Below are positions 1-46,168 of a stretch of DNA of 64,000 nt, in pieces. The stretch is taken from contig NC_079496.1 in NCBI RefSeq assembly GCF_030052815.1, forward strand, positions 66,081,652-66,145,651. Reading direction: 5' to 3'. The stretch comes from Hevea brasiliensis. Taxonomy: Eukaryota; Streptophyta; Magnoliopsida; Malpighiales; Euphorbiaceae. The notes under the pieces are model-generated. The model made no database searches, was not told the origin of the DNA, and was given only the letters and a program-made list of their open reading frames with translations. The position numbers were made by a program, and so were the translations under genes. How positions within the stretch are numbered: the stretch's first letter is position 1; every line of letters starts with the position of its first letter.

Positions 1-3000
1 ACAGTGGTTTTCCATGTGTCTAGGATCGCTTGGATGCACCTAGCTTTTTCAAGGTGTAGGGGAAACTTTTGTTGAAGGGAATTATAGGTTTTAATGCTTA
101 ATTGGAAGGGTGATCAAGGTTTACGACTTGAAAATGGTGGAAGGTTTGCCAAAGAGCGGTTCCGCTAACTTGAATGGAGAGAAGAAGATGAACAAAATTT
201 ATTTTATTTGTTTTCTTTTTATTTCTTTATAAGTGGTTGTCTCATTTTATTTGGGTGGAGATTTTTAATTACATAATCCTTACATATTGCTTGTGTCATA
301 ACTAGCTTTTTAATTTCATTTTATTTTTTTTTCTTTCTTCTCTCTCTTACTCATTTTTAAATAAATTTTCATTAATATTTGTTCATATTTTATGTCGTAA
401 TCCTCACTTACTTAAATGGAAAAGTTGGTCAAAAATCATCTCTCAAGGTGAAATGGGCAAAATACCCTTCGTTTTATTTAATGAGCTAAAATTGTTTGTA
501 TCGATTTACATAATTTTTCTTGTATTTTCTTGGCATTCTATTATCATCTAAACCTCAATAATCCTTCACTTGAGTCCCAGTAATTATTTCACAGGGTTTC
601 CCACAGGTCTAGGATCGCTTGGCTGCTACTAGCTTCTTCAAGGTGTAGGGGAAATTTTTGGTGAAGGGAATTATAGGTTTTAATGATTAATTGGAAGGGT
701 GATCAATGTTTACAACTTGAAAATGGTGGAAGGATTGCCAAAGAGTGGTTCTGCTAACTTGTATGGAGAGAAGAAGTTGAACAAAATTTATTTTATTTGT
801 TTTCTTTTATTTGTTTATAAATGGTTGTCTCATTTTAATTGGGTGGAGATTTTTAAATACATCATCCTTACATATTGCTTGTGTCATAATTAGCTTTTTA
901 ATTTCACTTTGTTTTTTTTTTCTTTCTTCTCTCTGTTACTCATTTTTAAATAAATTTTCATTAATATTTATTCATATTTTATGCCATAAACCTCACTTAC
1001 TTAAATGGACAAGTTGGTCAAAAATCATCTCTGAAAGTGAAATGGCCAAAATGCCCTTCGGTTTTTTAATGAGCTAAAATTGTTTGTATCGATTTACATA
1101 ATTTTTCTTGTATTTTCTTGGCATTCTATTATCATCTAAACCTCAATAATCCTTCACTTGAGTCCTAGTAATTATTTCACAGGGTTTCCCACAGGTCTAG
1201 GGTCGCTTGGCTGCTACTAGCTTCTTCAAGGTGTAGGGGAAACTTTTGTTGAATGGAATTATAGGTTTTAATGCTTAATTGGAAGGGTGATCAAGGTTTA
1301 CAACTTGAAAATGGTGGAAGGTTTGCCAAAGAGTGGTTCTGCTAACTTGAATGGAGAGAAGAAGATGAACAAAATTTATTTTATTTGTTTTCTTTTTATT
1401 TCTTTATAAGTGGTTGTCTCATTTTATTTGGGTGGAGATTTTTAATTACATCATCCTTACATATTACTTGTGTCATAACTAGCTTTTTAATTTCATTTTA
1501 TTTTTTTTTCTTTCTTCTCTCTCTTACTCATTTTTAAATAAATTTTCAACAATATTTATTCATATTTTATGTCATAATCCTCCCTTACTTAAATGGACAA
1601 GTTGGTCAAAAATCATCTCTAAAGGTGAAATGGCCAAAATGCCCTTCGTTTTTTTTTTTATGAGCTAAAATTCTTTGTATTGATTTACATAATTTTTCTT
1701 GTATTTTCTTGCGATTCTATTATCATCTAAACCTCAATAATACTTCACTTGAGTCCCAGTAATTATTTCACTGTGGTTTCCCATGTGTCTAGGATCGCTT
1801 GGTTGCTACTATCTTCTTCAAGGTGTAGGGAAATTTTTGGTGAAGGGAATTATAGTTTTTAATGCTTAATTGGAAGGGTGATCAATGTTCACACTTGAAA
1901 ATGGTGGAGAGTTTGCCAAAATGTGGTTCCACTAACTTGAATGGAGAGAAGAAGATGAACAAAATTTATTTTATTTGTTATCTTTTTATTTCTTTCTAAG
2001 TGGTCGTCTCATTTTAATTGGGTGGAGATTTTTAATTACATCATCCTTACATATTGCTTGTGTCATAACTAGCTTTTTAATTTCATTTTATTTTTTTTTC
2101 TTTCTTCTCTCTCTTACTCATTTTTAAATAAATTTTCATTAATATTTGTTCATATTTTATGTCATAATCCTCACTTACTTAAATGGACAAGTTGGTCAAA
2201 AATCATCTCTGAAGGTGAAATGGCCAAAATGGCCTTCATTTTTTTTAATGAGCTAAAATTGTTTGTATCGATTTACATAATTTTTCTTGTATTTTCTTGG
2301 CATTCAATTATCATCTAAACCTCAATAGTCCTTCACTTGAGTCCCAGTAATTATTTCACAGGTTTTCCATGTGTCTAGGATCGCTTGGATGCACCTAGCT
2401 TTTTCAAGGTGTAGGGGAAACTTTTGTTGAAGGGAATTATAGGTTTTAATGCTTAATTGGAAGGGTGATCAAGGTTTACGACTTGAAAATGGTGGAAGGT
2501 TTGCCAAAGAGCTTCCGCTTAACTTGAATGGAGAGAAGAAGATGAACAAAATTTATTTTATTTGTTTTCTTTTTATTTCTTTATAAGTGGTTGTCTCATT
2601 TTATTTGGGTGGAGATTTTTAATTACATAATCCTTACATATTGCTTGTGTCATAACTAGCTTTTTAATTTCATTTTATTTTTTTTTCTTTCTTCTCTCTC
2701 TTACTCATTTTTAAATAAATTTTCATTAATATTTGTTCATATTTTATGTCGTAATCCTCACTTACTTAAATGGAAAAGTTGGTCAAAAATCATCTCTCAA
2801 GGTGAAATGGGCAAAATACCCTTCGTTTTATTTAATGAGCTAAAATTGTTTGTATCGATTTACATAATTTTTCTTGTATTTTCTTGGCATTCTATTATCA
2901 TCTAAACCTCAATAATCCTTCACTTGAGTCCCAGTAATTATTTCACAAGGTTTCCCATAGGTCTAGGATCGCTTGGCTGCTACTAGCTTCTTCAAGGTGT

Positions 3001-4415
3001 AGGGGAAATTTTTGGTGAAGGGAATTATAGGTTTTAATGATTAATTGGAAGGGTGATCAATGTTTACAACTTGAAAATGGTGGAAGGATTGCCAAAGAGT
3101 GGTTCTGCTAACTTGTATGGAGAGAAGAAGATGAACAAAATTTATTTTATTTGTTTTCTTTTTATTTGTTTATAAATGGTTGTCTCATTTTAATTGGGTG
3201 GAGATTTTTAAATACATCATCCTTACATATTGCTTGTGTCATAATTAGCTTTTTAATTTCACTTTGTTTTTTTTTTCTTTCTTCTCTCTGTTACTCATTT
3301 TTAAATAAATTTTCATTAATATTTATTCATATTTTATGCCATAAACCTCACTTACTTAAATGGACAAGTTGGTCAAAAATCATCTCTGAAAGTGAAATGG
3401 CCAAAATGCCCTTCGGTTTTTTAATGAGCTAAAATTGTTTGTATCGATTTACATAATTTTTCTTGTATTTTCTTGGCATTCTATTATCATCTAAACCTCA
3501 ATAATCCTTCACTTGAGTCCTAGTAATTATTTCACAGGGTTTCCCACAGGTCTAGGGTCGCTTGGCTGCTACTAGCTTCTTCAAGGTGTAGGGGAAACTT
3601 TTGTTGAATGGAATTATAGGTTTTAATGCTTAATTGGAAGGGTGATCAAGGTTTACAACTTGAAAATGGTGGAAGGTTTGCCAAAGAGTGGTTCTGCTAA
3701 CTTGAATGGAGAGAAGAAGATGAACAAAATTTATTTTATTTGTTTTCTTTTTATTTCTTTATAAGTGGTTGTCTCATTTTATTTGGGTGGAGATTTTTAA
3801 TTACATCATCCTTACATATTACTTGTGTCATAACTAGCTTTTTAATTTCATTTTTTTTTTCTTTCTTCTCTCTCTTACTCATTTTTAAATAAATTTTCAA
3901 CAATATTTATTCATATTTTATGTCATAATCCTCCCTTACTTAAATGGACAAGTTGGTCAAAAATCATCTCTAAAGGTGAAATGGCCAAAATGCCCTTCGT
4001 TTTTTTTTTTTTATGAGCTAAAATTCTTTGTATTGATTTACATAATTTTTCTTGTATTTTCTTGCGATTCTATTATCATCTAAACCTCAATAATACTTCA
4101 CTTGAGTCCCAGTAATTATTTCACAGGGTTTCCCACAGGTCTAGGATCGCTTGGTTGCTACTATCTTCTTCAAGGTGTAGGGGAAATTTTTGGTGAAGGG
4201 AATTATAGTTTTTAATGCTTAATTGGAAGGGTGATCAATGTTCACAGCTTGAAAATGGTGGAGAGTTTGCCAAAATGTGGTTCCACTAACTTGAATGGAG
4301 AGAAGAAGATGAACAAAATTTATTTTATTTGTTATCTTTTTATTTCTTTATAAGTGGTCGTCTCATTTTAATTGGGTGGAGATTTTTAATTACATCATCC
4401 TTACATATTGCTTGT
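1..4415. repeat. Higher-order repeat A: 4-unit block (~2.35 kb) in two copies
   Basis: Units starting at 19, 608, 1196 and 1788 recur nearly base for base at 2374, 2962, 3551 and 4140 (offsets 2355, 2354, 2355, 2352). Shared rare variants include 'ggatgcacctagc', 'atgattaattgg', 'aggattgcc', 'gaatggaattata' and 'gagagtttgcc'. Identity drops inside the fourth pair, after roughly 2050 and 4400. Beyond that the unit at 1788 resembles the 3' half of the unit at 19 rather than its partner at 4140. That places the exchange point inside a unit. Confidence 0.85.
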
Positions 4416-7400
4416 GTCATAATTAGCTTTTTAATTTCATTTTATTTTGTTTTTCTTTCTTCTCTCTTTTACTCATTTTTAAAAAAAATTTCATTAATAT
4501 TTATTCATATTTTATGTCACAAGCCTCACTTACTTAAGTGGACAAGTTTGTCAAAAATCATCTCTAAAGTTGAAATGGCGAAAATGCCCTTCGTTTTATT
4601 TAATGAGCTAAAATTGTTTGTATCGATTTACATAATTTTTTTTGTATTTTCATGGCCTTCTATTATCATCTAAACCTCACTAATCCTTTACTTGAGTCCC
4701 AGTAATTATTTCACAGGGTTTGCCACAGGTCTATGATCGCTTGGGTACTACTAGCTTCTTCAAGGTGTAGGGAAAATTTTTGGTGAAGGGAATTATAGGT
4801 TTTAAAGCTTAATTGGGAGGGTGATCAAGGTTTACAACTTGAAAATGGTGGAAGGTTTGCCAAAGAGTAGTTCCGCTAACTTGAATGGAGAGAAGAAGAT
4901 GAACAAAATTTATTTTATTTGTTTTCTTTTTATTTCTTTATAAGTAGTTGTCTCATTTTAATTGGGTGGAGATTTTTAATTACGTCATCCTTGCATATTG
5001 CTTTTGTCATAATTAGCTTTTTAAATTCATTTTATTTTGTTTTTCTTTCTTCTCTCTATTACTCATTTTTAAATAAATTTTCATTAATATTTATTCATAT
5101 GTTATGTCATAAACATCACTTACTTAAATGGACAAGTTGGCCAAAAATCATCTCTGAAGGTGAAATGGCCAAAATGCCCTCCATTTTATTTCATGACCTA
5201 AAATTATTTGTATCGATTTACTTAATTTTTCTTGTATTTTCTTGGCATTCTATTATCATCTAAACCTCAATATTCCTTCACTTGAGTCCCAGTAATTTTT
5301 TCACAGGGTTTCCCACAGGTGTAGGATCGCTTGGCTGCTACTAGCTTCTTCAAGGTGTAGGGGAAATTTTTGGTGAAGGGAATTATAGGTTTTAATGCTT
5401 AATTGGAAGGGTGATAAAGGTTTACAACTTGAAAATGGTGGAAGGTTTGCCAAAGAGTGGTTCCGCTAACTTGAATGGAGAGAAGAAGATGAATAAAATT
5501 TATTTTATTTGTTTTCTTTTTATTTCTTTATAAGTGGTTGCTTCATTTTAATTTGGTGGAGATTTTTAATTACATCATCCTTACATTTTGCTTGTGTCAT
5601 AATTAGCTTTTTAATTTCATTTTTTTTATTTTCTTTCTTCTCTCTTTTACTCATTTTTAAATATATTTTCACTAATATTTATTCATATTTTATGTCATAA
5701 ACCTCACTTACTTAAATGGATAAGTTGGTCAAAAATCATCTCTGAAGGTGAAATGGCCAAAATGGCCTTCGTTTTATTTAATGAGCTAAAATTGTTTGCA
5801 TCGATTTACATTATTTTTCTTGTATTTTCTTGGCATTCTATTATCATCTAAACCTCAATAATCCTTCACTTGAGTCCCAGTAATTATTTCACAGGGTTTC
5901 CCACAGGTCTAGGATCGCTTGGTTGCTACTAGCTTCTTCAAGGTATAGGGGAAATTTTTGTTGAAGGGAATTATAGGTTTTAATGCTTAATTGGAAGGGT
6001 GATCAAGGTTTACAACTTGAAAATGGTGGAAGGTTTGCCAAAGAGTGGTTCCGCTAACTTGTATGGAGAGAAGAAGATGAACAAAATTTATTTTATTTGT
6101 TTTCTTTTTATTTCTTTATAAGTGGTTGTCTCATTTTAATTGGGTGGAGATTTTTAGTTACATCATACTTATATATTGCTTGTGTCATAATTAGCTTTTT
6201 AGTTTCATTTTGTTTTATTTTTCTTTCTTCTCTCTTTTACTCATTTTTAAGTAAATTTTCATTAATATTTATTCATATTTTATGTCATAAACCTTACTTA
6301 TTTAAATGGACCAGTTGGTCAAAAATCATCTCTGAAGGTGAAATGGCCAAAATGCCCTTCATTTTTTTAAATGAGCTAAAATTGTTTGTATCGATTTGCA
6401 TAATTTTTCTTGTATTTTCATGGCATTCTATTATCATCTAAACCTCAATAATACTTCACTTGAGCCACAGTAATTATTTCACAGGGTTTCCCATAGGTCT
6501 AGGATCGCTTGGCTGCTGCTAGCTTCTTCAAGGTGTAGGGGAAATTTTTGATGAAAGGAATTATATGTTTTAATGCTTAATTGGAAGGGTGATAAAGGTT
6601 TACAACTTGAAAATGGTGGAAGGTTTGCCAAAGATTGGTTCCGCTAACTTGAATGGAGAGAAGAAGATGAACAAAATTTCTTTTATTTGTTTTCTTTTTA
6701 TTTCTTTATAAGTGGTTGTCTCATTTTAATTGGGTGGAGATTTTTAATTACATCATCCTTACATATTGCTTGTGTCATAATTAGCTTTTTAATTTCATTT
6801 TATTTTGTTTTTCTTTCTTCTCTCTTTTACTCATTTTTAAAAAATTTTTCATTAATATTTATTCATATTTCATGTCACAAGCCTCAGTTACTTAAATGGA
6901 CAAGTTGGTCAAAAATCATATCTGAAGGTGAAATGGCCAAAATGCCCTTCGTTTTATTTAATGAGCTAAAATTGTTTGTATCGATTTACATAATTTTTTT
7001 TGTATTTTCTTGGCCTTCTATTATCATCTAAGCCTCACTAATCCTTCACTTGAGTCCCAGTAATTATTTCACAGGGTTTCCCACAGGTCTAGGATCGCTT
7101 GGCTGCTACTAGCTTCTTCAAGGTGTAGGGGAAATTTTTGTTGAAGGGAATTATAGGTTTTAATGCTTAATTAGAAGGGTGATCAAGGTTTACAACTTGA
7201 AAATGGTGGAAGGTTTGCCAAAGAGTAGTTCCGCTAACTTGAATGGAGAGAAGAAGATGAACAAAATTTATTTTATTTGTTTTCTTTTTATTTCTTTCTA
7301 AGTAGTTGTCTCATTTTAATTGGGTGGAGATTTTTAATTACGTCATCCTTGCATTTTGCTTGTGTCACAATTACCTTTTTAATTTCATTTTGTTTTTTTT

Positions 7401-8850
7401 TTTCTTCTCTCTTTTACTCATTTTTAAGTAAATTTTCATTAATATTTATTCATATTTTATGTCATAAACCTCTCTTACTTAAATGGACAAGTTGGTCAAA
7501 AATCATCTCTGAAGGTGAAATGGCCAAAATGCCCTTCGTTTTTTTTAATGAGCTAAAATTATTTGTATCGATTTACATAATTTTTCTTGTATTTTCTTGG
7601 CATTCTATTATCATCTAAGCCTCACTAATCCTTCACTTGAGTCCCAGTAATTATTTCACAGGGTTTCCCACAGGTCTAGGATCGCTTGGCTACTACTAGC
7701 TTCTTCAAGGTGTAGGAGAAATTTTTGTTGAAGGGAATTATATGTTTTAATGCTTAATTGGAAGGGTGATCAAGGTTTACAACTTGAAAATGGTGGAAGG
7801 TTTGCCAAAGAGTAGTTTCGCTAACTTGAATGGAGAGAAGAAGATGAACAAAATTTATTTTATTTGTTTTCTTTTTATTTCTTTCTAAGTAGTTGTCTCA
7901 TTTTAATTGGGTGGAGATTTTTAATTACGTCATCCTTGCATTTTGCTTGTGTCACAATTACCTTTTTAATTTCATTTTATTTTGTTTTTCTTTCTTCTCT
8001 CTTTTACTCATTTTTAAAAAAATTTTCATTAATATTTATTCATATTTCATGTCACAAGCCTCAGTTACTTAAATGGACAAGTTGGTCAAAAATCATCTCT
8101 GAAGGTGAAATGGCCAAAATGCCCTTCGTTTTATTTAATGAGCTAAAATTGTTTGTATCGATTTACATAATTTTTCTTGTATTTTCTTGGCCTTCTATTA
8201 TCATCTAAGCCTCACTAATCCTTCACTTGAGTCCCAGTAATTATTTCACAGGGTTTCCCACAGGTCTAGGATCGCTTGGCTACTACTAGCTTCTTCAAGG
8301 TGTAGGGGAAATTTTTGTTGAAGGGAATTATAGGTTTTAATGCTTAATTAGAAGGGTGATCAAGGTTTACAACTTGAAAATGGTGGAAGGTTTGCCAAAG
8401 AGTAGTTCCGCTAACTTGAATGGAGAGAAGAAGATGAACAAAATTTATTTTATTTGTTTTCTTTTTATTTCTTTCTAAGTAGTTGTCTCATTTTAATTGG
8501 GTGGAGATTTTTAATTACGTCATCCTTGCATTTTGCTTGTGTCACAATTACCTTTTTAATTTCATTTTGTTTTTTTTTTCTTCTCTCTTTTACTCATTTT
8601 TAAGTAAATTTTCATTAATATTTATTCATATTTTATGTCATAAACCTCACTTACTTAAATGGACAAGTTGGTCAAAAATCATCTCTGAAGGTGAAATGGC
8701 CAAAATGCCCTTCGTTTTTTTAAATGAGCTAAAATTGTTTGTATCGATTTACATAATTTTTCTTGTATTTTCTTGGCATTCTATTATCATCTAGACCTCA
8801 ATAATACTTCACTTGAGTCTCAGTAATTATTTCACAGGGATTCCCATAGG

Positions 8851-11800
8851 TCTAGGATCGCTTGGCTGCTGCTAGCTTCTTCAAGGTGCAGGGGAAATTT
8901 TTGGTGAAAGGAATTATAGGTTTCAATGCTTATTTGGAAGGGTGATAAAGGTTTACAACTTGAAAATAGTGGAAGGTTTGCCAAAGATTGGTTCCGCTAA
9001 CTTGAATCGAGAGAAGAAGAAGAACAAATTTTTTTTTATTTGTTTTCTTTTTATTTCTTTATAAGTGGTTGTCTTATTTTAATTGGGTGGAGATTTTTAA
9101 TTACATCATCCTTACATATTGCTTGTGTCATAATTAGCTTTTTAATTTCATTTTGTTTTTTTTTTCTTTCTTCTCTCTTTTACTCATTTTTAAATAAGTT
9201 TTCATTAATATTTATTCATATTTTATGTCATAAACCTCAGTTACTTAAATGGACAAGTTGGTCAAAAATCTTCTCTGAAGATGAAATGGCCAAAATGCCC
9301 TTCGTTTTTTTTTAATGAGCTAAAATTGTTTGTATCGATTTACATAATTTTTCTTGTATTTTCTTGGAATTCTATTATCATCTAAACCTCAATAATCCTT
9401 CACTTGAGTCCCAGTGATTATTTCACAGGGTTTCCCATAGGTCTAGGATCGGTTGGCTGCTCCTAGCTTATTCAAGGTGTAGGGGAAATTTTTGGTGAAG
9501 GGAATTATAGGTTTTAATGCTTAATTGGGAGGGTGATCAAGGTTTACAACTTGAAAATGGTGGAAGGTTTACCAAAGAGTGGTTCCTCTAACTTGAATGG
9601 AGAGAAGAAGATGAACAATATTTATTTTATTTGTTTTCTTTTTATTTCTTTATAAGTAGTTGTCTCATTTTAATTGGGTGGAGATTTTTAATTACGTCAT
9701 CCTTGCATTTTGCTTGTGTCACAATTAGCTTTTTAATTTCATTTTTTTTTTATTTTCTTTGTTCTCTCTTTTACTCATTTTTAAATATATTTTCACTAAT
9801 ATTTATTCATATTTTATGTCGTAAACCTCACTTACTTACATGGATAAGTTGGTCAAAAATTATCTCTGAAGGTGAAATGGCCAAAATGGCTTTCATTTTA
9901 TTTAATGAGCTAAAATTGTTTGTATCGATTTACATTATTTTTCTTGTATTTTCTTGGCATTCTATTATCATCTAAACCTCAATAATCCTTCACTTGAGTC
10001 CCAGTAATTATTTCACAGGGTTTCCCACAGGTCTAGGATCGCTTGGCTTCTACTAGCTTCTTCAAGGTGTAGGGGAAATTTTTGGTGAAGGGAATTATAG
10101 GTTTTAATGCTTAATTGGAAGGGTGATCAAGGTTTACAACTTGAAAATGGTGGAAGGTTTGCCAAAGAGTGGTTCTGCTAATTTGTATGGAGATAAGAAG
10201 ATGAACAAAATTTATTTTATTAGTTTTCCTTTTATTTCTTTATAAGTGCTTGTCTCATTTTAATTGGGTGCAGATTTTTAATTACATCACCCTTACATAT
10301 TGCTTGTGTCATAATTAGCTTTTTAATTTCATTTTCTTTTGGTTTTCTTTCTGCTCTCTTTTACTCATTTTTAAATAATTTTTCCTTAATATTTATTCAT
10401 ATTTTATGTCATAAACCTCTCTTACTTAAATGGACAAGTTGGTCAAAAATCATCTCTGAAGGTGAAATGGCCAAAACGCCCTTCGTTTTTTTTTTTTTAT
10501 GAGCTAAAATTCTTTGTATTGATTTACATAATTTTTCTTGTATTTTATTGGGATTCTATTATCATCTAAACCTCAATAATACTTCACTTGAGTCCCAGTA
10601 ATTATTTCACAGGGTTTCCCACAGGTCTAGGATCGCTTGGCTAATACTAGCTTCTTCAAGGTGTAGGGGAAAATTTTGGAGAAAGGAATTATAGGTTTTA
10701 ATGCTTAATTGGATGGGTGATAAAGGTTTACAACTTGAAAATGGTGGAAGGTTTGCCAAAGAGTGGTTCCGTTAACTTGAATGGAGAGAAGAAGATGAAT
10801 AAAATTTATTTTATTTGTTTTCTTTTTATTTCTTTATAAGTGGTTGTCTCATTTTAATTGGGTGGAGATTTTTAATTACATCATCCTTATATATTGCTTG
10901 TGTCATAATTAGCTTTTTAATTTTATTTTGTTTTTTTTTTCTTTGTTCTCTCTTTTACTCATTTTTAAGTAAATTTTCATTAATATTTATTTATATTTTA
11001 TGTCATAAACCTCACTTACTTAAATGGACAAGTTGGTCAAAAATCATCTCTGAAGGTGAAATGGCCAAAATGCCCTTCGTTTTTTTAAATGAGCTAAAAT
11101 TGTTTGTATCGATGTACATAATTTTTCTTGTATTTTCTTGGCATTCTATTATCATCTAAACCTCAATAATACTTCACTTGAGTCCCAGTAATTATTTCAC
11201 AAGGTTTCCCACAGGTCTAGGATCGCTTGGCTGCTGCTAGCTACTTCAAGGTGTAGGGGAAATTATTGGTGAAAGGAATTATAGGTTTTAATGCTTAATT
11301 GGAAGGGTGATAAAGGTTTACAACTTGAAAATAGTGGAAGGTTTGCCAAAGATTGGTTCCGCTAACTTGAATGGAGAGAAGAAGATGAACAAAATTTTTT
11401 TATTTGTTTTCTTTTTATTTCTTTATAAGTGGTTGTCTCATTTTAATTGGGTGGAGATTTTTAATTACATCATCCTTACATATTGCTTGTGTCATAATTA
11501 GCTTTTTAATTTCATTTTTTTTTGTTTTCTTTCTTCTCTCTTTTACTCATTTTTAAATAAATTTTCATTAATATTTATTCATATTTTATGTCATAAACCT
11601 CAGTAACTTAAATGGACAAGTTGGTCAAAAATCTTCTCTGAAGATGAAATGGCCAAAATGCCCTTCGTTTTTTTTTTAATGAGCTAAAATTGTTTGTATC
11701 GATTTACATAAATTTTCTTGTATTTTCTTGGCATTCTATTATCATCTAAAACTCAATAATCCTTCACTTGAGTCCCAGTGATTAATTCACAGGGTTTCCC

Positions 11801-13570
11801 ATAGGTCTAGGATCGGTTGGCTGCTACTAGCTTCTTCAAGGTGTAGGGGAAATTTTTGGTGAAGGGAATTATAGGTTTTAATGCTTAATTGGAAGGGTGA
11901 TCAAGGTTTACAACATGAAAATGGTGGAAGGTTTACCAAAGAGTGGTTCCGCTAACTTGAATGGAGAGAAGAAGATGAACAATATTTATTTTATTTGTTT
12001 TCTTTTTATTTCTTTATAAGTAGTTGTCTCATTTTAATTGTGTGGAGATTTTTAATTACGTCATCCTTGCATTTTGCTTGTGTCACAATTAGCTTTTTAA
12101 TTTCATTTTTTTTATTTTCTTTCTTCTCTCTTTTACTCATTTTTAAATATATTTTCACTAATATTTATTCATATTTTATGTCGTAAACCTCACTTACTTA
12201 AATGGATAAGTTGGTCAAAAATCATCTCTGAAGGTGAAATGGCCAAAATGGCTTTCATTTTATTTAATGAGCTAAAATTGTTTGTATCAATTTGCATTAT
12301 TTTTCTTGTATTTTCTTGGCATTCTATTATCATCTAAACCTCAATAATCCTTCACTTGAGTCCCAGTAATTATTTCACTGGGTTTCCCACAGGTCTAGGA
12401 TCGCTTGGCTTCTACTAGCTTCTTCAAGGTGTAGGGGAAATTTTTGGTGAAGGGAATTATAGGTTTTAATGCTTAATTGGAAGGGTGATCAAGGTTTACC
12501 ACTTGAAAATGGTGGAAGGTTTGCCAAAGAGTGGTTCCGCTAATTTGTATGGAGAGAAGAAGATGAACAAAATTTATTTTATTAGTTTTCCTTCTATTTC
12601 TTTATAAGTGCTTGTCTCATTTTAATTGGGTGCAGATTTTTAATTACATCATCCTTACATATTGCTTGTGTCATAATTAGCTTTTTAATTTCATTTTCTT
12701 TTGTTTTTCTTTCTGCTCTCTTTTACTCATTTTTAAATAAATTTTCATTAATATTTATTCATATTTTATGTCATAAACCTCACTTACTTAAATGGACAAG
12801 TTGGTAAAAAATCATCTCTGACGGTGAAATGGCCAAAATGCCCTTCGTTTTTTTTTTATGAGCTAAAATTCTTTGTATTGATTTACATAATTTTTCTTGT
12901 ATTTTCTTGGGATTCTATTATCATCTAAACCTCAATAATACTTCACTTGAGTCCCAGTAATTATTTCACACGGTTTCCCACAGGTCTAGGATCGCTTGGC
13001 TACTAGCTTCTTCAAGGTGTAGGGGAAAATTTTGGAGAAAGGAATTATAGGTTTTAATGCTTAATTGGAAGGGTGATAAAGGTTTACAACTTGAAAATAG
13101 TGGAAGGTTTGCCAAAGATTGGTTCCGCTAACTTGAATGGAGAGAAGAAGATGAACAAAATTTTTTTATTTGTTTTCTTTTTATTTCTTTATAAGTGGTT
13201 GTCTCATTTTAATTGGGTGGAGATTTTTAATTACATCATCCTTACATATTGCTTGTGTCATAATTAGCTTTTTAATTTCATTTTGTTTTTGTTTTCTTTC
13301 TTCTCTCTTTTACTCATTTTTAAATAAATTTTCATTAATATTTATTCATATTTTATGTCATAAACCACAGTTACTTAAATGGACAAGTTGGTTAAAAATC
13401 ATCTCTGAAGGTGAAATGGCCAAAATGCCCTTCATTTTTTTTAATGAGCTAAAATTGTTTGTATCGATTTGCATAATTTTTCTTATATTTTCTTGGCATT
13501 CTATTATCATCTAAACCTCAATAATCCTTCACTTGAGTCCCAGTAATTATTTCACAGGGTTTCCCATAGG
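8851..13570. repeat. Higher-order repeat B: 4-unit block in two copies
   Basis: Units at 8851, 9442, 10032 and 10626 pair with those at 11216, 11806, 12394 and 12985 (offsets 2359-2365). Shared markers are 'gaaaatagtgg...agattgg' (first pair), 'gatcggttgg' (second), 'cttggcttctactagc' (third) and 'aaaattttggagaaagg' (fourth). The unit at 12985 matches 10626 only for about its first 80 bp, then matches 11216. It is therefore a recombinant unit made at the block boundary. Confidence 0.75.
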
Positions 13571-18500: not shown

Positions 18501-18976
18501 GGAAGGTTTGCCAAAGAGTGGTTCCGCTAACTTGTATGGAGAGAAGAAGATGAACAAATTTTATTTTATTAGCTTTCCTTTTATTTCTTTATAAGTGCTT
18601 GTCTCATTTTAATTGGGTGCAGATTTTTAATTATATCATCCTTACTTATTGCTTGTGTCATAATTAGCTTTTTAATTTCATTTTATTTTGTTTTTCTTTC
18701 TTCTCTCTTTTACTCATTTTTAAATAAATTTTCATTAATATTTATTCATATTTTATGTTATAAACCTCACTTACTTAAATGGACAAGTTGGTCAAAAATC
18801 ATCTCTGAAGGTGTAATGGCCAAAATGCCCTTCGTTTTTTTTTTATGAGCTAAAATTCTTTGTATTGATTTAGATAATTTTTCTTGCATTTTCTTGGGAT
18901 TCTATTATCATCTAAACCTCAATAATACTTCACTTGAGTCCCAGAAATTATTTTACAGGGTTTCCCACTGGTCTAG
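15549..18976 (-). repeat. Satellite array segment 2
   Basis: Resumes the unit broken at 14875, with further unit starts at 16018, 16609, 17201, 17790, 18381 and 18972. The remainder of the interrupted unit carries the diagnostic variants 'ttattagttttcc' and 'gggtgcagattttt', also seen after the other two chimeric insertions. The segment ends at 18972-18976 in the target site of the TRIM. Confidence 0.95.
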
Positions 18977-33200: not shown

Positions 33201-36144
33201 GCTTGGCTGCTACTAGCTTCTTCAAGGTGTAGGGGAAATTTTTGGTGAAGGGAATTATAGGTTTTAATGCTTAATTGGAAGGGTGATAAAGGTTTACAAC
33301 TTGAAAATGGTGGAAGGTTTGCCAAAGAGTGGTTCCGCTAACTTGAATGGAGAGAAGAAGATGAACAAAATTTTTTTTATTTGTTTTCTTTTTATTTCTT
33401 TATAAGTGGTTGTCTCATTTTAATTGGGTGGAGATTTTTAATTACATTATCCTTACATATTGCTTGTGTCATAATTAGCTTTTTAATTTCATTTTGTTTT
33501 TTTTTCTGTCTTCTTTCTTTTACTCATTTTTAAATAAATTTTCATTAATATTTTTCCATATTTTATGTCATGAACCTCAGTTACATAAATGGACAAGTTG
33601 GTCAAAAATCATCTCTGAAGGTGAAATGGCCAAAATGCCCTTCGTTTTTTTTAATGAGCTAAAATTTTTTGTATCGATTTACATTATTTTTCTTGTATTT
33701 TCTTCGCATTCTATTATCATCTAAACCTCAATAATACTTCACTTGAGTCCCAGTAATTATTTCACAGGGTTTCCCACAGGTCTAGGATCGCTTGGCTGCT
33801 GCTAGCTTCTTCAAGGTGTAGGGGAAATTTTTGGTGAAGGGAATTATAGGTTTTAATGCTTAATTGGAAGGGTGATCAAGGTTTACAACTTGAAAATGGT
33901 GGAAGGTTTACCGAAGAGTGGTTCCGCTAACTTGAATGGAGAGAAGAAGATGAACAATATTTATTTTATTTGTTTTTTTTTTTATTTCTTTATAAGTCGT
34001 TGTCTCATTTTAATTGGGTGGAGATTTTTAATTACATCATCCTTACATTTTGCTTGTGTCATAATTAGCTTTTTAATTTCATTTTTTTTTTGTTTTTCTT
34101 TCTTCTCTCTTTTACACATTTTTAAATATGTTTTCATTAATATTTATTCATATTTTATGTCATAAACCTCACTTACTTAAATGGACAAGTTGGTCAAAAA
34201 TCATCTCTGAAGGTGAAATGGCCAAAATGCCCTTCGTTTTTTTTAATGAGCTAAAATTGTTTGTATCGATGTACATAATTTTTTTTTGTATTTTATTGGC
34301 ATTCTATTATCATCTAAACCTCAATAATCCTTCGCTTGAGTCCCAGTAATTATTTCATAGGGTTTCCCACAGGTCTAGGATCGCTTGGCTGCTACTAGCT
34401 TCTTCAAGGTGTAGGGGAAATTTTTGGTGAAGGGAATTATAGGTTTTAATGCTTAATTGGAAGGGTGCTAAAGGTTTACAACTTGAAAATGGTGGAAGGT
34501 TTGCCAAAGAGTGGTTCCGCTAACTTGAATGGAGAGAAGAACATGAACAAAATTTTTTTTATTTGTTTTCTTTTTATTTCTTTATAAGTGGTTATCTCAT
34601 TTTAATTGGGTGGAGATTTTTAATTACATCATCCTTACATATTGCTTGTGTCATAATTAGCTTTTTAATTTAATTTTGTTTTTTTTTTTCTTTCTTCTCT
34701 CATTTACTCATTTTTAAATAAATTTTCATTAATATTTATTCATATTTTATGTCATAAACCTTACTTACTTAAATGGACAAGTTGGTCAAAAATCATCTCT
34801 GAAGGTGAAATGGCCAAAATGCCCTTCGTTTTTTTAATGAGCTAAAATTGTTTGTATCGATTTACATAATTTTTCTTGTATTTTCTTGGTATTCTATTAT
34901 CATCTGAACCTTAATAGTACTTCACTTGAGTCCCAGTAATTATTTCACAGGGTTTCCCACAGGTCTAGGATCGCTTGACTGCTGCTAGCTTCTTCAAGGT
35001 GTAGGGGAAATTTTTGGTGAAAGGAATTATAGGTTTTAATGCTTAATTGGAAGGGTGATAAAGGTTTACAACTTGAAAATGGTGGAAGGTTTGCCAAAGA
35101 TTGGTTCCGCTAACTTGAATGGAGAGAAGAAGATGAACAAAATTTTTTTTATTTGTTTTCTTTTTATTTCTTTATAAGTGGTTGTCTCATTTTAATTAGG
35201 TGGAGATTTTTAATTACATCATCCTTACATATTGCTTGTGTCATAATTAGCTTTTTAATTTCATTTTGTTTTTTTTTCTGTCTTCTCTCTTTTACTGATT
35301 TTTAAATAAATTTTCATTAATATTTATTCATATTTTATGTCATAAACCTCACTTACTTAAATGGAAAAGTTGGTCAAAAATCATCTCTGAAGGTGAAATG
35401 GCCAAAATGCCCTTCGTTTTTTTTAATGAGCTAAAATTGTTTGTATCGATTTACATAATTTTTCTTGTATTTTCTTGGCATTCTATTATCATCTAAACCT
35501 CAATAATCCTCCACTTCTGTCCCAGTAATTATTTCACAGCGTTTCCCATAGGTCTAGGATCGCTTGGCTGCTACTAGCTTCTTCAAGGTGTAGGGGAAAT
35601 TTTTGGTGAAGGGAATTATAGGTTTTAATGCTTAATTGGAAGGGTGATCAAGGTTTACAACTTGAAAATGGTGGAAGGTTTACCAAAGAGTGGTTCCGCT
35701 AACTTGAATGGAGAGAAGAAGATGAACAATATTTATTTTATTTGTTTTTTTTTTTTATTTCTTTATAAGTCGTTGTCTCATTTTAATTGGGTGGAGATTT
35801 TTAATTACATCACCCTTACATTTTGCTAATGTCATAATTAGCTTTTTAATTTCATTTTTTTTTGTTTTTCTTTCTTCTCTCTTTTACTCATTTTTAAATA
35901 TGTTTTCATTAATATTTATTCATATTTTATGTCATAAACCTCACTTACTTAAAAAAACAAGTTGGTCAAAAATCATCTCTGAAGGTGAAATGGCCAAAAT
36001 GCCCTTCGTTTTTTTTAATGAGCTAAAATTGTTTGTATCGATGTACATAATTTTTCTTGTATTTTCTTGGCATTCTGTTATCATCTAAACCTCAATAATC
36101 CTTCGCTTGAGTCCTAGTAATTATTTCACAGGGTTTACCACAGG
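30246..36144. repeat. Higher-order repeat C: 4-unit and 5-unit versions of one block
   Basis: Units at 30246, 30835 and 31425 match 32603, 33192 and 33781, and the unit at 32014 matches 34964. The second version has one extra unit (34374). A further copy of the block's first unit type starts at 35553. Markers: 'cacagcgtttcccata' before 30246, 32603 and 35553; 'cattttgctaatg' in the same three; 'accgaagagtgg' at 31425 and 33781; 'gcttgactgctgc' at 32014 and 34964. The unit at 31425 is like 33781 in its first half and like 34374 in its last part ('ttggtattctattatcatctg'). Confidence 0.75.
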
Positions 36145-37918
36145 TCTAGGATCGCTTGGCTGCTACTAGCTTCTTCAAGGTGTAGGGGAAATTTTTGGTA
36201 AAGGGAATTATAGGTTTTAATGCTTAATTGAAAGGGTGATCAAGGTTTACAACTTGAAAATGGTGGAAGGTTTGCCAAAGAGTGGTTCCGCTAACTTGTA
36301 TGGAGAGAACAAGATGAACAAAATTTATTTTATTTGTTTTCCTTTTATTTCTTTATAAGTGCTTGTCTAATTTTAATTGGGTGCAGATTTTTAATTATAT
36401 CATCCTTACTTATTGCTTGTGTCATAATTAGCTTTTTAATTTCATTTTATTTTGTTTCTCTTTCTTCTCTCTTTTACTCATTTTTAAATAAATTTTCATT
36501 AATATTTTTTCATATTTTATGTCATAAACCTCACTTACTTAAATGGACAAGTTGGTCAAAAATCATCTCTGAAGGTGAAATGGCCAAAATGCCCTTCGTT
36601 TTTTTTTTTATGAGCTAAAATTCTTTGTATTGATTTACATAATTTTTCTTGTATTTTCTTGGGATTCTATTATCATCTAAACCTCAATAATACTTCACTT
36701 GAGTCCCAGTAATTATTTCACCGGGTTTCCCACAGGTCTAGGATCGCTTGGCTGATACGAGCTTCTTCAAGGTGCAGGGGAAATTTTTTGTGAAAGGAAT
36801 TGTAGGTTTTAATGCTTAATTGGAAGGGTGATAAAGGTTTACAACTTGAAAATGGTGGAAGGTTTGCCAAAGATTGGTTCCGCTAAGTTGAATGGAGAGA
36901 AGAAGATGAACAAAATTTTTTTTATTTGCTTTCTTTTTTTTTCTTTATAAGTGGTTGTCTCATTTTAATTGGGTGGAGATTTTTAATTACATCATCTTTA
37001 CATATTGCTTGTGTCATAATTAGCTTTTTAATTTCATTTTGTTTTTTTTTTTTATGTCTTCTCTCTTTTACTGATTTTTAAATAAATTTTCATTAATATT
37101 TATTCATATTTTATGTCATAAACCTCACTTACTTACATGGACAAGTGGGTCAAAAGTCATCTCTGAAGGTGAAATGGCCAAAATGCCCTTCGTTTTTTTA
37201 ATTAGCTAAAATTGTTTGTATCAATTTACATAATTTTTCTTGTATTTTCTTGGCATTCTATTATCATCTAAACCTCAATAATCCTTCACTTGAGTCCCAG
37301 TAATTATTTCACAGGGTTTCCCATAGGTCTAGGATCGCTTGGCTGCTACTAGCTTCTTCAAGGTGTAGGGGAAATTTTTGGTGAAGGGAATTATAGGTTT
37401 TAATGCTTAATTGGAAGGGTGATCAAGGTTTACAACTTGAAAATGGTGGAAGGTTTACCAATGAGTGGTTCCGCTAACTTGAATGGAGGGAAGAAGATGA
37501 AGAATATTTATTTTATTTGTTTTTTTTTTTATTTCTTTATAAGGCGTTGTCTCATTTTAATTGGGTGGAGATTTTTAATTACATCATCCTTACATTTTGC
37601 TTATGTCATAATTAGCTTTTTAATTTCATTTTTTTTTTGTTTTTCTTTCTTCTCTATTTTACTCATTTTTAAATATGTTTTCATTAATATTTCTTCATAT
37701 TTTATGTCATAAACCTCACTTACTTACATGGACAAGTTGGTCAAAAGTCATCTCTGAAGGTGAAATGGCCAAAATGCCCTTCGTTTTTTTAATGAGCTAA
37801 AATTTTTTGTATCAATTTACATAATTTTTCTTGTATTTTCTTGGCATTCTATTATCATCTAAACATCAATAATCCTTTACTTGAGTCCCAGTAATTATTT
37901 CACAGGGTTTCCCATAGG

Positions 37919-40900
37919 TCTAGGATCGCTTGGCTGCTACTAGCTTCTTCAAGGTGTAGGGGAAATTTTTGGTGAAGGGAATTATAGGTTTTAATGCTTA
38001 ATTGGAAGGGTGATCAAGGTTTTCAACTTGAAAATGGTGGAAGGTTTACCAAAGAGTGGTTCCGCTAACTTGAATGGAGGGAAGAAGATGAACAATATTT
38101 ATTTTATTTGTTTTTTTTTTATTTCTTTATAAGTCGTTGTCTCATTTTAATTGGGTGGAGATTTTTAATTACATCATCCTTACATTTTGCTTATGTCATA
38201 ATTAGCTTTTTAATTTCATTTTTTTTTATTTTTCTTTCTTCTCTCTTTTACTCATTTTTAAATATGTTTTCATTAATATTTATTCATATTTTATGTCATA
38301 AACCACACTTACTTAAATGGACAAGTTGGTCAAAAATCATCTCTGAAGGTGAAATGGCCAAAATGCCCTTCGTTTTTTTTAATGAGCAAAAATTGTTTGT
38401 ATCGATGTACATAATTTTTCTTGTATTTTCTTGGCATTCTATTATCATCTAAACCTCAATAATCCTTCGCATTAGTCCTAGTAATTATTTCACAGGGTTT
38501 CCCACAGGTCTAGGATCGCGTGGCTGCTACTAGCTTCTTCAAGGTGTAGGGGAAATTTTTGGTGAAGGGAATTATAGGTTTTAATGCTTAATTGGAAGGG
38601 TGATCAAAGTTTACAACTTGAAAATGGTGGAAGGTTTGCCAAAGAGTGGTTCCGCTAACTTGTATGGAGAGAAGAAGATGAACAAAATTTATTTTATTAG
38701 TTTTCCTTTTATTTCTTTATAAGTGCTTGTCTAATTTTAATTGGGTGCAGATTTTTAATTGTATGATCCTTACTTATTGCTTGTGTCATAATTAGCTTTT
38801 TAATTTCATTTTATTTTGTTTCTCTTTCTTCTCTCTTTTACTCATTTTTAAATAAATTTTAATTAATATTTATTCATATTTTATGTCATAAACCTCACTT
38901 ACTTAAATGGACAAGTTAGTCAAAAATCATCTCTGAAGGTGAAATGGCCAAAATGCCCTTCGTTTTTTTTTATGAGCTAAAATTCTTTGTATTGATTTAC
39001 ATAATTTTTCTTGTATTTTCTTGGGATTCTATTATCATCTAAACCTCAATAATATTTCACTTGAGTCCCAGTAATTATTTCACAGGGTTTCCCACAGGTC
39101 TAGGATCGCTTGGCTGCTACTAGCTTCTTCAAGGTGTAGGGGAAATTTTTGGTGAAAGGAATTATAGGTTTTAATGCTTAATTGGAAGGGTGATAAAGGT
39201 TTACAACTTGAAAATGGTGGAAGGTTTGCCAAAGAGTGGTTCCGCTAACTTGAATGGAGAGAAGAAGATGAACAAAATTTATTTTATTTGTTTTCTTTTT
39301 ATTTCTTTATAAGTGGTTGTCTGATTTTAATTGGGTGGAGATTTTTAATTACATCATCCTTACATATTGCTTGTGTCATAATTAGCTTTTTAATTTTATT
39401 TTGTTTTTTTTTTCTGTCTTCTCTCTTTTATTGATTTTTAAATAAATTTTCATTAATATTTATTCATATTTTATGTCATAAACCTCACTTACTTAAATGG
39501 ACAAGTTGGTCAAAAATCATCTCTGAAGGTGAAATGGCCAAAATGCCCTTCGTTTTTTTTAATGAGCTAAAATTGTTTGTATCGATTTACATAATTTTTC
39601 TTGTATTTTTCTTGGCATTCTATTATCATCTAAACCTCAATAATCCTTCACTTGAGTCCCAGTAATTATTTCACAGGTTCCCATAGGTCTAGGATCGCTT
39701 GGCTGCTACTAGCTTCTTCAAGGTGTAGGGGAAATTTTTGGTGTAGGGAATTATAGGTTTTAATGCTTAATTGGAAGGGTGATCAAGGTTTACAACTTGA
39801 AAATGGTGGAAGGTTTACCAAAGAGTGGTTCCGCTAACTTGAATTGAGGGAAGAAGATGAACAATATTTATTTTATTTGTTTTTTTTTATTTCTTTATAA
39901 GTCGTTGTCTCATTTTAATTGGGTGGAGATTTTTAATTACATCATCCTTACATTTTGCTTATGTCATAATTAGCTTTTTAATTTCATTTTTTTTTTGTTT
40001 TTCTTTCTTCTCTCTTTTACTCATTTTTAAATATGTTTTCATTAATATTTATTCATATTTTATGTCATAAACCTCACTTACTTAAATGGACAAGTTGGTC
40101 AAAAATCATCTCTGAAGGTGAAATGGCCAAAATGCCCTTCGTTTTTTTTAATGAGCTAAAATTGTTTGTATCGATGTACATAATTTTTCTTGTATTTTCT
40201 TGGCATTCTATTATCATCTAAACCTCAATAATCCTTCGCTTGAGTCCCAGTAATTATTTCACAGGGTTTCCCACAGGTCTAGGATCGCTTGGCTGCTACT
40301 AGCTTCTTCAAGGTGTAGGGGAAATTTTTGGTGAAGGGAATTATAGGTTTTAATGCTTAATTGGAAGGGTGATCAAGGTTTACAACTTGAAAATGGTGGA
40401 AGGTTTGCCAAAGAGTGGTTCCGCTAACTTGTATGGAGAGAAGAAGATGAACAAAATTTATTTTATTAGTTTTCCTTTTATTTCTTTATAAGTGCTTGTC
40501 TAATTTTAATTGGGTGCAGATTTTTAATTATGTCATCCTTACTTATTGCCTGTGTCATAATTAGCTTTTTAATTTCATTTTATTTTGTTTCTCTTTCTTC
40601 TCTCTTTTACTCATTTTTAAATAAATTTCAATTATTATTTATTCATATTTTATGTCATAAACCTCACTTACTTAAATGGACAAGTTGGTCAAAAATCATC
40701 TCTGAAGGTGAAATGGCCAAAATGCCCTTCATTTTTTTTTATGAGCTAAAATTCTTTGTATTGATTTACATAATTTTTCTTGTATTTTCTTGGGATTCTA
40801 TTATCATCTAAACCTCAATAATACTTCACTTGAGTCCCAGTAATTATTTCACAGGGTTTCCCACGGGTCTAGGATCGCTTGGCTGCTACTAGCTTTTTCA

Positions 40901-41450
40901 AGGTGTAGGGGAAATTTTTGGTGAAAGGAATTATAGGTTTTAATGCTTAATTGGAAGGGTGATAAAGGTTTACAACTTGAAAATGGTGGAAGGTTTGCCA
41001 AAGAGTGGTTCCGCTAACTTGAATGGAGAGAAGAAGATGAACAAAATTTATTTTATTTGTTTTCTTTTTATTTCTTTATAAGTGATTGTCTGATTTTAAT
41101 TGGGTGGAGATTTTTAATTACATCATCCTTGCATATTGCTTGTGTCATAATTAGCTTTTTAATTTTATTTTTTTTTCTGTCTTCTCTCTTTTATTGATTT
41201 TTAAATAAAATTTCATTAATATTTATTCATATTTTATGTCATAAACCTCACTTACTTAAATGACAAGTTGGTCAGAAATCATCTCTGAAGGTGAAATGGC
41301 CAAAATGCCCTTCGTTTTTTTTAATGAGCTAAAATTGTTTGTATCGATTTACATAATTTTTTTTGTATTTTCTTGGCATTCTATTATCATCTAATCCTCA
41401 ATAATACTTCACTTAAGTCCCAGTAATTATTTCACAGGGTTTCCCACAGG
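37919..41450. repeat. Higher-order repeat D: 3-unit block in two copies (offset 1769 bp)
   Basis: Units at 37919, 38509 and 39099 pair with 39688, 40278 and 40868, all at an offset of exactly 1769 bp. Shared rare variants are 'gagggaagaagatgaacaat' in the first pair, 'ttattagttttcc' with 'gcttgtctaattttaattg' in the second, and 'ttgtctgattttaattg' with 'tcttttattgattttt' in the third. Confidence 0.75.
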
Positions 41451-41576
41451 TCTAGGATCGCTTGGCTGCTACTAGCTTCTTCAAGGTGTAGGCGAAATTT
41501 TTGGTGAAGGGAATTATAGGTTTTAATGCTTAATTGGAAGGGTGATCAAGGTTTACAACTTGAAAATGGTGGAAGA

Positions 41577-42250
41577 TGTGACGCCCCTTACCCGTCTACC
41601 ATATAACCGAGCAAGAAGTGCCACATTCGGTGCCGGAGCACCCTATCTTGTTTTATCATATCTATTGTAAACTTTTGATGTCATTTAAAACATGTATTCT
41701 TTGTGTAAATTTTTTTTTTATATCTTATTTCTGTGGAGACCCGGACAGAGCCTCCCTTATTTTATTAGCATCTGGCGGATTCCACTAATCACCTGTTAAC
41801 ATGTCCATATTCATTTCACATATTTCCGTATCATATTCTCATGTATCATATCATTTACAATTATTTATGAGATTTCAAAATGAAGTATTATCTATTGCAT
41901 TCATATAGAAATTCATAGATAATAAATTACAAGTTTTCATTTCAATCTCAAAGTTTAATTACAAGTCCAAAATGAAATACATCATAAACTAGTAATTACA
42001 TCATGACTAAACATAATGAACCAAAATACTAGTCTATACATGGACCCTACCAAAATACAACAGACCGGTGAGGTGACTCTGGACAATGGTAGACACAAAT
42101 GTAATGGCCTGGCCCACTAGTGATATTGTCCGCTCTGGGCCGAAGCCCTCACGGTTTTAAAACGCGTCAATAGGGGTTACGAACTATCAACTTATGAACC
42201 CAGCAACTCTCCCGTGTTTTGCCGATGTGGGATTTGCCTAGGGTGTTACA
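41577..42250 (-). mobile_element. Chimeric insertion, copy 3
   Basis: A gypsy LTR-end fragment (41577-42099) and an inverted TRIM LTR (42100-42250, ending GGGTGTTACA), again between 'gtggaaga' and 'gaaggtttgcc'. The upstream unit has the same 'gtaggcgaaattt' and 'cacttaagtcc' variants as before copy 2. The downstream unit has the same 'ttattagttttcc' and 'gggtgcagattttt' variants as after copies 1 and 2. It is a duplicated array segment rather than an independent hit. Confidence 0.75.
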
Positions 42251-43134
42251 GAAGGTTTGCCAAAGAGTGGTTCCGCTAACTTGTATGGAGAGAAGAAGAT
42301 GAACAAAATTTATTTTATTAGTTTTCCTTTTATTTCTTTATAAGTGCTTGTCTCATTTTAATTGGGTGCAGATTTTTAATTACATCATCCTTACATATTG
42401 CTTGTGTCATAATTAGCTTTTTAATTTCATTTTATTTTGTTTTTCTTTTTGCTCTCTTTTACTCATTTTTAAATAAATTTTCATTAATATTTATTCATAT
42501 TTTATGTTATAAACCTCACTTACTTAAATGGACAAGTTGGTCAAAAATCATCTCTGAAGGTGAAATGGCCAAAATGCCCTTCATTTTTTTTAATGAGCTA
42601 AAATTATTTGTATCGATTTACATAATTTTTCTTGTATTTTCTTGGCATTCTATTATCATCTAAACCTCAATAATACTTCACTTGAGTCCCAGTAATTATT
42701 TCACAGGGTTTCCCACAGGTCTAGGATCGCTTGGCTGCTGCTAGCTTCTTCAAGGTGTAGGGGAAATTTTTGGTGAAAGGAATTATAGGTTTTAATGCTT
42801 AATTGGAAGGGTGATAAAGGTTTACAACTTGAAAATGGTGGAAGGTTTGCCAAAGAGTGGTTCCGCTAACTTGAATGGAGAGAAGAAGATGAACAAAATT
42901 TTTTTTGTTTGTTTTCTTTTTATTTCTTTATAAGTGGTTGTCTCATTTTAATTGGGTGGAGATTTTTAATTACATCATCCTTACATATTGCTTGTGTCAT
43001 AATTAGCTTTTTAATTTCACTTTGTTTTTTTTTTTCTTTCTTCTCTCTTTTACTCATTTTTAAATAAATTTTCATTAATATTTATTCATATTTTATGTCA
43101 TAAACCTCACTTACTTAAATAGACAAGTTGGTCA
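42251..43134 (-). repeat. Satellite array segment 6 and truncated last repeated unit
   Basis: The remainder of the split unit and one more start at 42720. That unit stops after 'aagttggtca' at 43134, about 415 bp in, where the TRIM complex begins. The missing ~165 bp ('aaaatcatctctgaagg' through 'cacaggg') are not found on the far side, where sequence resumes at 'ttcccactggtctagg' (43652). A deletion therefore accompanied the insertion. Confidence 0.9.
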
Positions 43135-43526
43135 TGTAACACCCTAGGCAAATCCCACATCGACAAAACACGGGAGTGATGCTGGGTTTATAAGTTGATG
43201 GTTCGTAACCCCTATTGACGCGTTTTAAAACCGTGAGGGCTTCGACCCAGAGCGGACAATATCACTAGTGGGCCGAGCCATTACATTTATCGTATCAGAG
43301 CTGCTCCGCGTGCAACCTTGAACGATGGTGGGGCAAACCTCAGCGAGGACGCTGAGTCCCATAAGGGGGGTGGATTGTAACACCCTAGGCAATTCCCACA
43401 TCGACAAAACACGGGAGTGATACTGGGTTTATAAGTTGATGGTTCGTAACCCCTATTGACGCATTTTAAAACCGTGAGAGCTTCAACCCAGAGCGGACAA
43501 TATCACTAGTGGGCCGAGCCATTACA
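43135..43526 (+). mobile_element. Second TRIM copy (392 bp)
   Basis: LTRs at 43135-43285 and 43376-43526 are each 151 bp and differ at 5 positions by eye. The core matches the TRIM at 18977, with 'aaggggggtgga' just before the second LTR, but the PBS is altered to tcgtatcagag (about 43290). No matching target duplication was found: the left flank is 'ttggtca', and on the right it abuts an inverted partial LTR. The antisense frame 43225-43407 is not a gene. Confidence 0.88.
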
Positions 43527-43651
43527 TTGTCCGCTCTGGGCCGAAGCCCTCACGGTTTTAAAACGCGTCACTAGGGGTTACGAACCACCAACTTATAAAC
43601 CCAGCATCTCTCCCGTGTTTTGCCGATGTGGGATTTGCCTAGGGTGTTACA
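43527..43651 (-). mobile_element. Inverted partial TRIM LTR forming a fold-back with the neighbouring LTR
   Basis: These 125 bp, from 'ttgtccgctctggg' to 'gggtgttaca', are the reverse complement of positions 1-125 of the TRIM LTR; the other 26 bp are absent. Together with 43376-43500 they form 125-bp inverted arms around a 26-bp spacer (43501-43526). Confidence 0.85.
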
Positions 43652-43906
43652 TTCCCACTGGTCTAGGATCGCTAACTGTCTTCACAGTCGCTTCCCGTTA
43701 GGGTTACCTGTCGCAGTAGCATCGGCTCATTTAACCTATCTCCATTTCCTTTCTTTTATTTTTCCTTCATTTTTCTTGTCATTATTTACGTTATTTATGA
43801 CTCCTCGCTCTAGTTCAGATATAGTTTCATACATTCTGGTTGTCCGGACAGATATTAGTCACTAGAACAGTAGACAGTGTGGACTACCTAAAGTAAGGAT
43901 GTCACA
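43652..43906 (-). repeat. Unrepeated terminal part of the expanded LTR
   Basis: Starts with satellite sequence (ttcccactggtctaggatcgct). Where every array unit continues 'tggctgc', this continues 'aactgtcttcacag', as does the LTR at 49271 onward ('aactatctttacag'). It goes on in parallel to that LTR ('ctcatttaacctatctcc', 'gaacagtag', 'ctacctaaagtaaggatg') and ends TGTCACA at 43906. In minus-strand sense this is the first ~230 bp of the 3' LTR. Confidence 0.85.

Positions 43907-46136: not shown

Positions 46137-46168
<32 letters not shown>

What the first reader, a model, noticed from the sequence alone, without database searches (positions are those of the whole stretch)
1..43906. A satellite array growing inside one LTR of an identifiable retrotransposon
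Seen: about 64 units of ~590 bp end in register in a normal LTR tail (43652-43906), followed by polypurine tract, gag remnant, initiator-Met PBS and a second LTR with just one unit. This captures a satellite's birth in place: donor, parent element and amplified product lie side by side. LTR-derived satellites are known in plants (for example Sobo in Solanum), but an array still framed by its own element is rarely so clear.
Basis: partly seen in the sequence, partly recalled or inferred. Interest (0 to 1): 0.9.

Follow-up and report, generated by a model that had tools for sequence, protein, structure and literature searches.

The report
Satellite array grown inside one retrotransposon
In a plant chromosome a 590-base piece of one dead retrotransposon has multiplied in place into a block of roughly 460 to 480 copies, about 306,000 bases long and still framed on both sides by the element it came from, so the start and ageing of a satellite DNA can be read directly.

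Summary
The window shows only the right end of the array: 64 units (59 whole, 5 interrupted). In the host genome the array runs left to C4:65819081, about 306 kb and an estimated 460-483 units. There it joins, in register, single-copy sequence of the same LTR; that LTR begins TGTGACACCCC beside a target duplication TTGCC, repeated after the other LTR at window 49507. Joined without one TTGCC, the two flanks, 330 kb apart, align unbroken to another Gypsy copy: one insertion, one target. An array-specific joint has 136 exact matches in 1.88 Gb, all at this locus. So an LTR segment that is single-copy in the sister LTR and in a relative became tandem and grew in place, from breakpoints sharing only 2 bp, then by block copying. 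It is not newborn: units differ by about 7%. Units carry 2.1-2.8 times more changes than the same sequence in two single-copy LTRs, while single-copy parts of the same LTR show no excess. LTR-derived satellites are known; the preserved frame and built-in rate control are unusual.

The parts
1..43134 (-). Right-hand part of the satellite array inside the 3' LTR: 59 whole and 5 interrupted units of about 590 bp (element on the minus strand); the whole array is G000:C4:65819081-66124785
14874..15548 (.). 675-bp composite insert (LTR-end-like piece plus a TRIM LTR); copies at 21262-21938 and 41576-42250 at the same unit position, 97.3% identical: copied together with units
18977..19368 (+). TRIM element with two LTRs, PBS-like TGGTATCAGAGC and target duplication TCTAG
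24755..27883 (-). Insert of about 3.1 kb inside one unit, looking like a solo LTR of a related family (67-78% to parts of the LTR)
43135..43651 (.). TRIM plus inverted partial TRIM LTR; about 164 bp of LTR missing at this place, between last unit and tail
43652..43906 (-). Tail of the 3' LTR (its 5' end on the minus strand), in register with the array
43907..43922 (-). Polypurine tract (GTTAGAGGGGAAGAAT on the minus strand)
43923..45268 (-). Interior of the element: broken gag remnant with a zinc knuckle at 44284-44517; no pol found
45269..45279 (-). Primer binding site TGGTATCAGAG
45285..49506 (-). Complete 5' LTR with a single copy of the unit at 48684-49274
49507..49511 (.). Target duplication TTGCC; partner at G000:C4:65800823-65800827
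49512..49658 (-). Right half of the target, a Gypsy gag/zinc-knuckle fragment; the left half lies 330 kb away at C4:65800000-65800827

Best explanation
A non-autonomous LTR retrotransposon (only a gag remnant left) inserted once into another Gypsy element and made a TTGCC target duplication (shown). A 590-bp, CpG-poor stretch of its 3' LTR, single-copy in its sister LTR, was joined head to tail at breakpoints that share only the 2 bp CT (joint shown); most likely this was illegitimate, microhomology-type recombination or replication slippage (inferred). From then on homologous misalignment, probably between sister chromatids, copied blocks of about 3-12 units over distances of a few to about 56 units (blocks shown, route inferred) and carried passenger transposons along (shown), until the 3' LTR held about 306 kb of array. 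The array stayed at one locus, and its units changed faster than their single-copy counterparts (shown on two single-copy copies; cause unknown).
For: Both array ends are in register with the same LTR; LTR start, target duplication and empty-site continuity over 330 kb; 136 exact joints, all at this locus; unit single in the 5' LTR and in L002; breakpoints with 2-bp overlap; 68 runs of copied blocks against a mean of 0.05 in 20 shuffles; three copies of one insert at one unit position; all 362 units used form one clade apart from both single-copy LTRs, support 0.774.
Against: In single-copy parts the element's two LTRs are not nearer to each other than to the relative L002: differences LTR5-LTR3, LTR5-L002, LTR3-L002 are 35/36/35 of 405, 24/18/19 of 276 and 37/33/27 of 231. 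I read this as a burst of insertions at about one time; it does not by itself show that the LTRs are a pair. Array units are about as far from L002 as from the sister LTR. The array holds a 13,354-base N run, about 14 kb left of the array start and about 48 kb of the array's left part were not read, and long reads were not available.
Confidence: 0.86

Rival explanations
1. The array was made elsewhere or as extrachromosomal circles (unit ends joined, rolling-circle copied) and entered this LTR by homologous recombination through the unit, which would also give in-register ends.
For: In-register ends are expected here too; array units are about equally far from L002 and from the sister LTR; 15-17 stem changes are shared by most units, as if the founder were already a variant.
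Against: No exact joint is found anywhere else in the genome, so no surviving outside source array is seen. The search was for exact joints only; about a third of joints with at most four mismatches in the held array (110 of 343) are exact.
Confidence: 0.09
2. Misassembly: unrelated array sequence was joined to the LTR pieces.
For: A 13,354-base N run lies inside the array; no reads could be checked.
Against: Two far-apart ends agree in register, in target duplication and in empty-site continuity; the 5-bp match alone has a chance of about 1 in 1000.
Confidence: 0.03
3. The two LTR halves belong to different elements brought together by recombination between copies, and the array grew at that junction.
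For: The two LTRs are no nearer to each other than to L002; the tail is 16% diverged.
Against: Recombinants of two insertions should not share a target duplication or restore one target; both are met. The tail is also fast in the pair LTR5-L002 and is CpG-rich.
Confidence: 0.02

Closest known systems
CRM4TR and CRM1TR of maize (PMC3648361; passages plus sections 9 and 15 read)
   Same: Satellite made from LTR(-UTR) sequence; CRM4TR lies at a single locus of about 170 kb, interrupted by inserted retrotransposons; the authors propose an illegitimate-recombination start and growth by non-allelic gene conversion.
   Different: There the unit spans LTR and UTR and the starting structure is a model; here the unit is LTR only, and the parent element, its target duplication and both breakpoints are still in place.
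Ogre-derived satellites of Lathyrus sativus (PMC7004042; abstract and sections 7 and 10 read)
   Same: Tandem arrays inside LTR retrotransposons expand in place into satellites.
   Different: There short tandem repeats already exist in the 3' UTR of many element copies; here the seed is a segment that is single-copy in the sister LTR and in L002, and one locus only was found.
Sobo of Solanum bulbocastanum (only its table row in the review PMC9659126 seen; details recalled)
   Same: Satellite derived from LTR sequence; as recalled, one pericentromeric block of a few hundred kb.
   Different: As recalled, a monomer of about 4.7 kb; I do not recall a described in-place frame and could not read the paper.

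Membership tests
LTR retrotransposon (parent) | Two LTRs in the same orientation with PBS and PPT next to them | tested here: met
   one LTR is split by the array
LTR retrotransposon (parent) | Target-site duplication and an empty site | tested here: met
   TTGCC on both sides; joined flanks align over 975 bp in one piece
LTR retrotransposon (parent) | Coding region gag-pol | tested here: not met
   Interior of 1.38 kb with a zinc knuckle only: a non-autonomous or deleted copy
Tekay/Del-type chromovirus (lineage of the parent) | Chromodomain and reverse transcriptase of that lineage | tested here: inconclusive
   Parent lacks pol. Its LTR tail is 72% like the LTR of a neighbouring Gypsy element whose chromodomain match is below the cut-off (E 0.005). 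The lineage name is recalled.
LTR-derived satellite DNA | Long head-to-tail array of an LTR segment | tested here: met
LTR-derived satellite DNA | Seed segment not tandem in the parent LTR | tested here: met
   Single in the 5' LTR and in L002; other close copies not examined
LTR-derived satellite DNA | Cytological block | not testable with these tools
   Needs FISH
TRIM (passenger inserts) | Short LTR pair, PBS and PPT, no coding sequence | tested here: met
   18977-19368 with target duplication TCTAG and TGGTATCAGAGC, read by eye

The most novel reading that the evidence does not exclude
Being in a tandem array raises the substitution rate by itself. The same 590 bp carries on average 35.4 private changes per array unit (24-57, n = 356) against 12.8 in the sister LTR and 16.7 in L002, while single-copy parts of the array-bearing LTR have as many as the sister LTR (28 and 28 of 681). 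This would be a satellite with its own built-in clock control, pointing to recombination-linked mutation or heavier methylation of the array.
Probability: 0.4. Interest if true: 0.78.

Novelty: new member of a known kind. Interest (0 to 1): 0.64.

Why it matters
How a satellite starts is usually inferred after the parent has been lost. Here the donor sequence, the founding breakpoints, the insertion's target duplication and the grown array all survive at one address. The start of the array can be set against the LTR clock, the founding joint can be read to the base (2-bp overlap), and the rate of change in an array can be compared with the same sequence in single copy in the same element. It also shows that a large array can grow from one LTR and, as far as exact joints tell, stay at one locus without seeding others.

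Tried and rejected
The tail's 16% divergence against about 5% for the unit first looked like proof that array and tail had different origins. It is not: in the independent pair 5' LTR-L002 the same tail is also fast (11-13% per 150 bp against 2-6% inside the unit), and it is CpG-rich (2.8 against 0.3 per 100 bp).

Tandem Repeats Finder does not show the array because its longest period is 500. No Rfam family at gathering score and no tRNA gene were found in the window. A paper search for one guessed species, Hevea brasiliensis, listed no paper that held that name.

A search for variant joints (two mismatches) and searches with the unit and with LTR stretches did not complete, so 'one locus' rests on exact joints.

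Full report
What is in the window. The window is G000:C4:66081652-66145651 of a 1.877-Gb, 755-contig genome with no name attached; its retrotransposons are plant-like. Comparison of the complete LTR at its right with the window gives 59 whole units of about 590 bp and 5 interrupted ones at 29-43134, all on one strand, the whole ones 90-93% like the single unit of that LTR. Dropped from the count of 64: a 28-base stub at the left edge and a 75% match at 27370-27653 that belongs to an inserted related LTR. After the last unit come a TRIM and an inverted partial TRIM, where about 164 bp of LTR are missing, and then the LTR tail in register (43652-43906). Next are a PPT, a 1.38-kb interior with a gag zinc knuckle, the PBS and the complete 5' LTR (45285-49506). 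The element is read on the minus strand. In calls the LTR is numbered from base 45288, three bases inside its end.

The left end. I fetched neighbouring sequence. The array continues for 262.6 kb. In the 249.9 kb held in one piece (65875652-66125557, a 13,354-base N run included) there are 356 near-whole units and 20 part-matches, none reversed. At 65818800-65819672 the LTR is read from position 3116 to 3987 without a break, and the next unit begins again at position 3397. So the array starts at 65819081, in register with its own LTR. Further left, LTR positions up to 2894 lie at 65800828-65803620, beginning TGTGACACCCC; there a related sequence in inverted orientation interrupts the LTR. Positions about 2895-3115 fall in the 14 kb that I did not read. 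Array span: 305,705 bp; less 20,773 bp of known inserts and the N run this is 460 units, or 483 if the N run is array too. Between 65820201 and 65875651 I read only one 3-kb sample, all units (L030); the rest is counted as array on that and on 26 exact joints found there. Inserts in that part are unknown, so the unit number is an estimate.

One insertion. After the right LTR end come the bases TTGCC; the five bases before the left LTR end are TTGCC. The left flank alone aligns to a Gypsy copy in the window up to the site, the right flank alone from the site on, and the two joined without one TTGCC align to it over 975 bp at 76% in one piece (window 58886-59863). The two flanks, 330 kb apart, are therefore the two sides of one target. 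This is the strongest evidence and does not depend on the satellite.

One locus. A 21-base pattern across the head-to-tail joint has 136 exact matches in the genome, all forward. The 100 listed lie at C4:65820248-66073437, and the held sequence to the right of these contains exactly the other 36. In the held array 343 places match the pattern with at most four mismatches and 110 of them are exact; in 100.9 kb of held DNA outside the array no place matches even with four mismatches. A second array of some tens of units with similar joints should thus have shown. Strongly changed, differently joined or very short arrays are not excluded.

How it started and grew. The unit is single in the 5' LTR and in L002 on C2. 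The two breakpoints in the single-copy LTR share only CT at the joint, which fits illegitimate recombination or slippage and speaks against a long repeat as the seed. Later growth copied blocks: 68 runs of at least three neighbouring units recur at 98% or more elsewhere in the array (offsets 4 to 56 units in the 40 listed), 210 of 356 units taking part, against a mean of 0.05 runs in 20 shuffles of the order. The first units of the window repeat at a period of four. Passenger inserts were copied too: a 675-bp composite occurs three times at one unit position at 97.3% identity, and TRIM clusters of differing make-up sit at one unit position (about 424-432) in three places. Unequal exchange or sister-chromatid repair is the natural route; that step is inferred.

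Age and rate. The two LTRs differ at 48 of 859 and 159 of 1944 positions in the left part and at 41 of 254 in the CpG-rich tail. At a recalled grass rate of 1.3e-8 per site and year the left part gives about 3 million years; the rate for this plant is unknown. Units differ from each other by 6.9% on average (5.7% within the window). This is an aged satellite. With L002 as third sequence, single-copy LTR parts have 28 private changes in the array-bearing LTR, 28 in the sister LTR and 23 in L002, of 681; in the tail, 15, 21 and 11 of 231. The unit has 35.4 private changes per array unit (24-57) against 12.8 and 16.7, of about 587, and 356 of 356 units exceed the sister LTR. The units are not independent, 15-17 of the changes are shared by most of them, and only two single-copy units were at hand, so the 2.1-2.8-fold excess is a lead. 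Copying from other family members could mimic it. The first unit next to the LTR, aligned on its own, has 26 private changes against 13 and 17.

Origin of the founder. The 362 array units put in a tree form one clade without the 5' LTR and L002 (support 0.774). Against a simple reading, the two LTRs of this element are not nearer to each other than to L002 (35/36/35 of 405, 24/18/19 of 276 and 37/33/27 of 231 for LTR5-LTR3, LTR5-L002, LTR3-L002), and array units are about equally far from both. A burst of insertions at about one time explains that, and the target duplication holds the two halves together. The frame shows where the array sits and grew; it does not by itself prove that the founder unit was never converted by another copy.

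Literature. I searched the open library. CRM1TR/CRM4TR (PMC3648361, passages and two sections) and the Ogre satellites (PMC7004042, abstract and two sections) are the closest that I read; PMC9659126 and PMC12628747 (reviews) and PMC7215508 (tandem TRIMs) were seen in passages. In what I read I saw no array still enclosed by both halves of its own LTR with a matching target duplication, though the Ogre arrays are also embedded in their elements; most subscription papers, Sobo's included, were not at hand. The kind is known; the completeness of the record is what is unusual.

Noticed in passing
43955-44096 and 46102-46203: Two perfect palindromes (arms 71 and 51 bp, no spacer) centred on TA runs. 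The 3' LTR has only one arm of the second, so it is a local inverted duplication in the 5' LTR, or an assembly or sequencing artefact.
   Followed up: partly
G000:C4:65882298-65895651: A run of 13,354 N inside the array; whether an assembly gap or a withheld stretch is unknown.
   Followed up: no
52853-64340 (last 340 bases beyond the window): A Gypsy element with an LTR pair 94.3% identical over 3.3 kb and gag, protease, reverse transcriptase and integrase pieces; its LTR end is 72% like the tail of the array's element.
   Followed up: partly
49530-50153: An open frame in which a Copia reverse transcriptase fragment runs into a Gypsy zinc knuckle: a chimeric junction of two broken elements beside the insertion.
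   Followed up: no
G000:C4:65989809-65991366, 66012604-66014742, 66068829-66069726: Clusters of TRIM units in differing numbers and orientations at one unit position in three places of the array, as if a tandem or inverted TRIM cluster was copied with the satellite and then diverged.
   Followed up: partly
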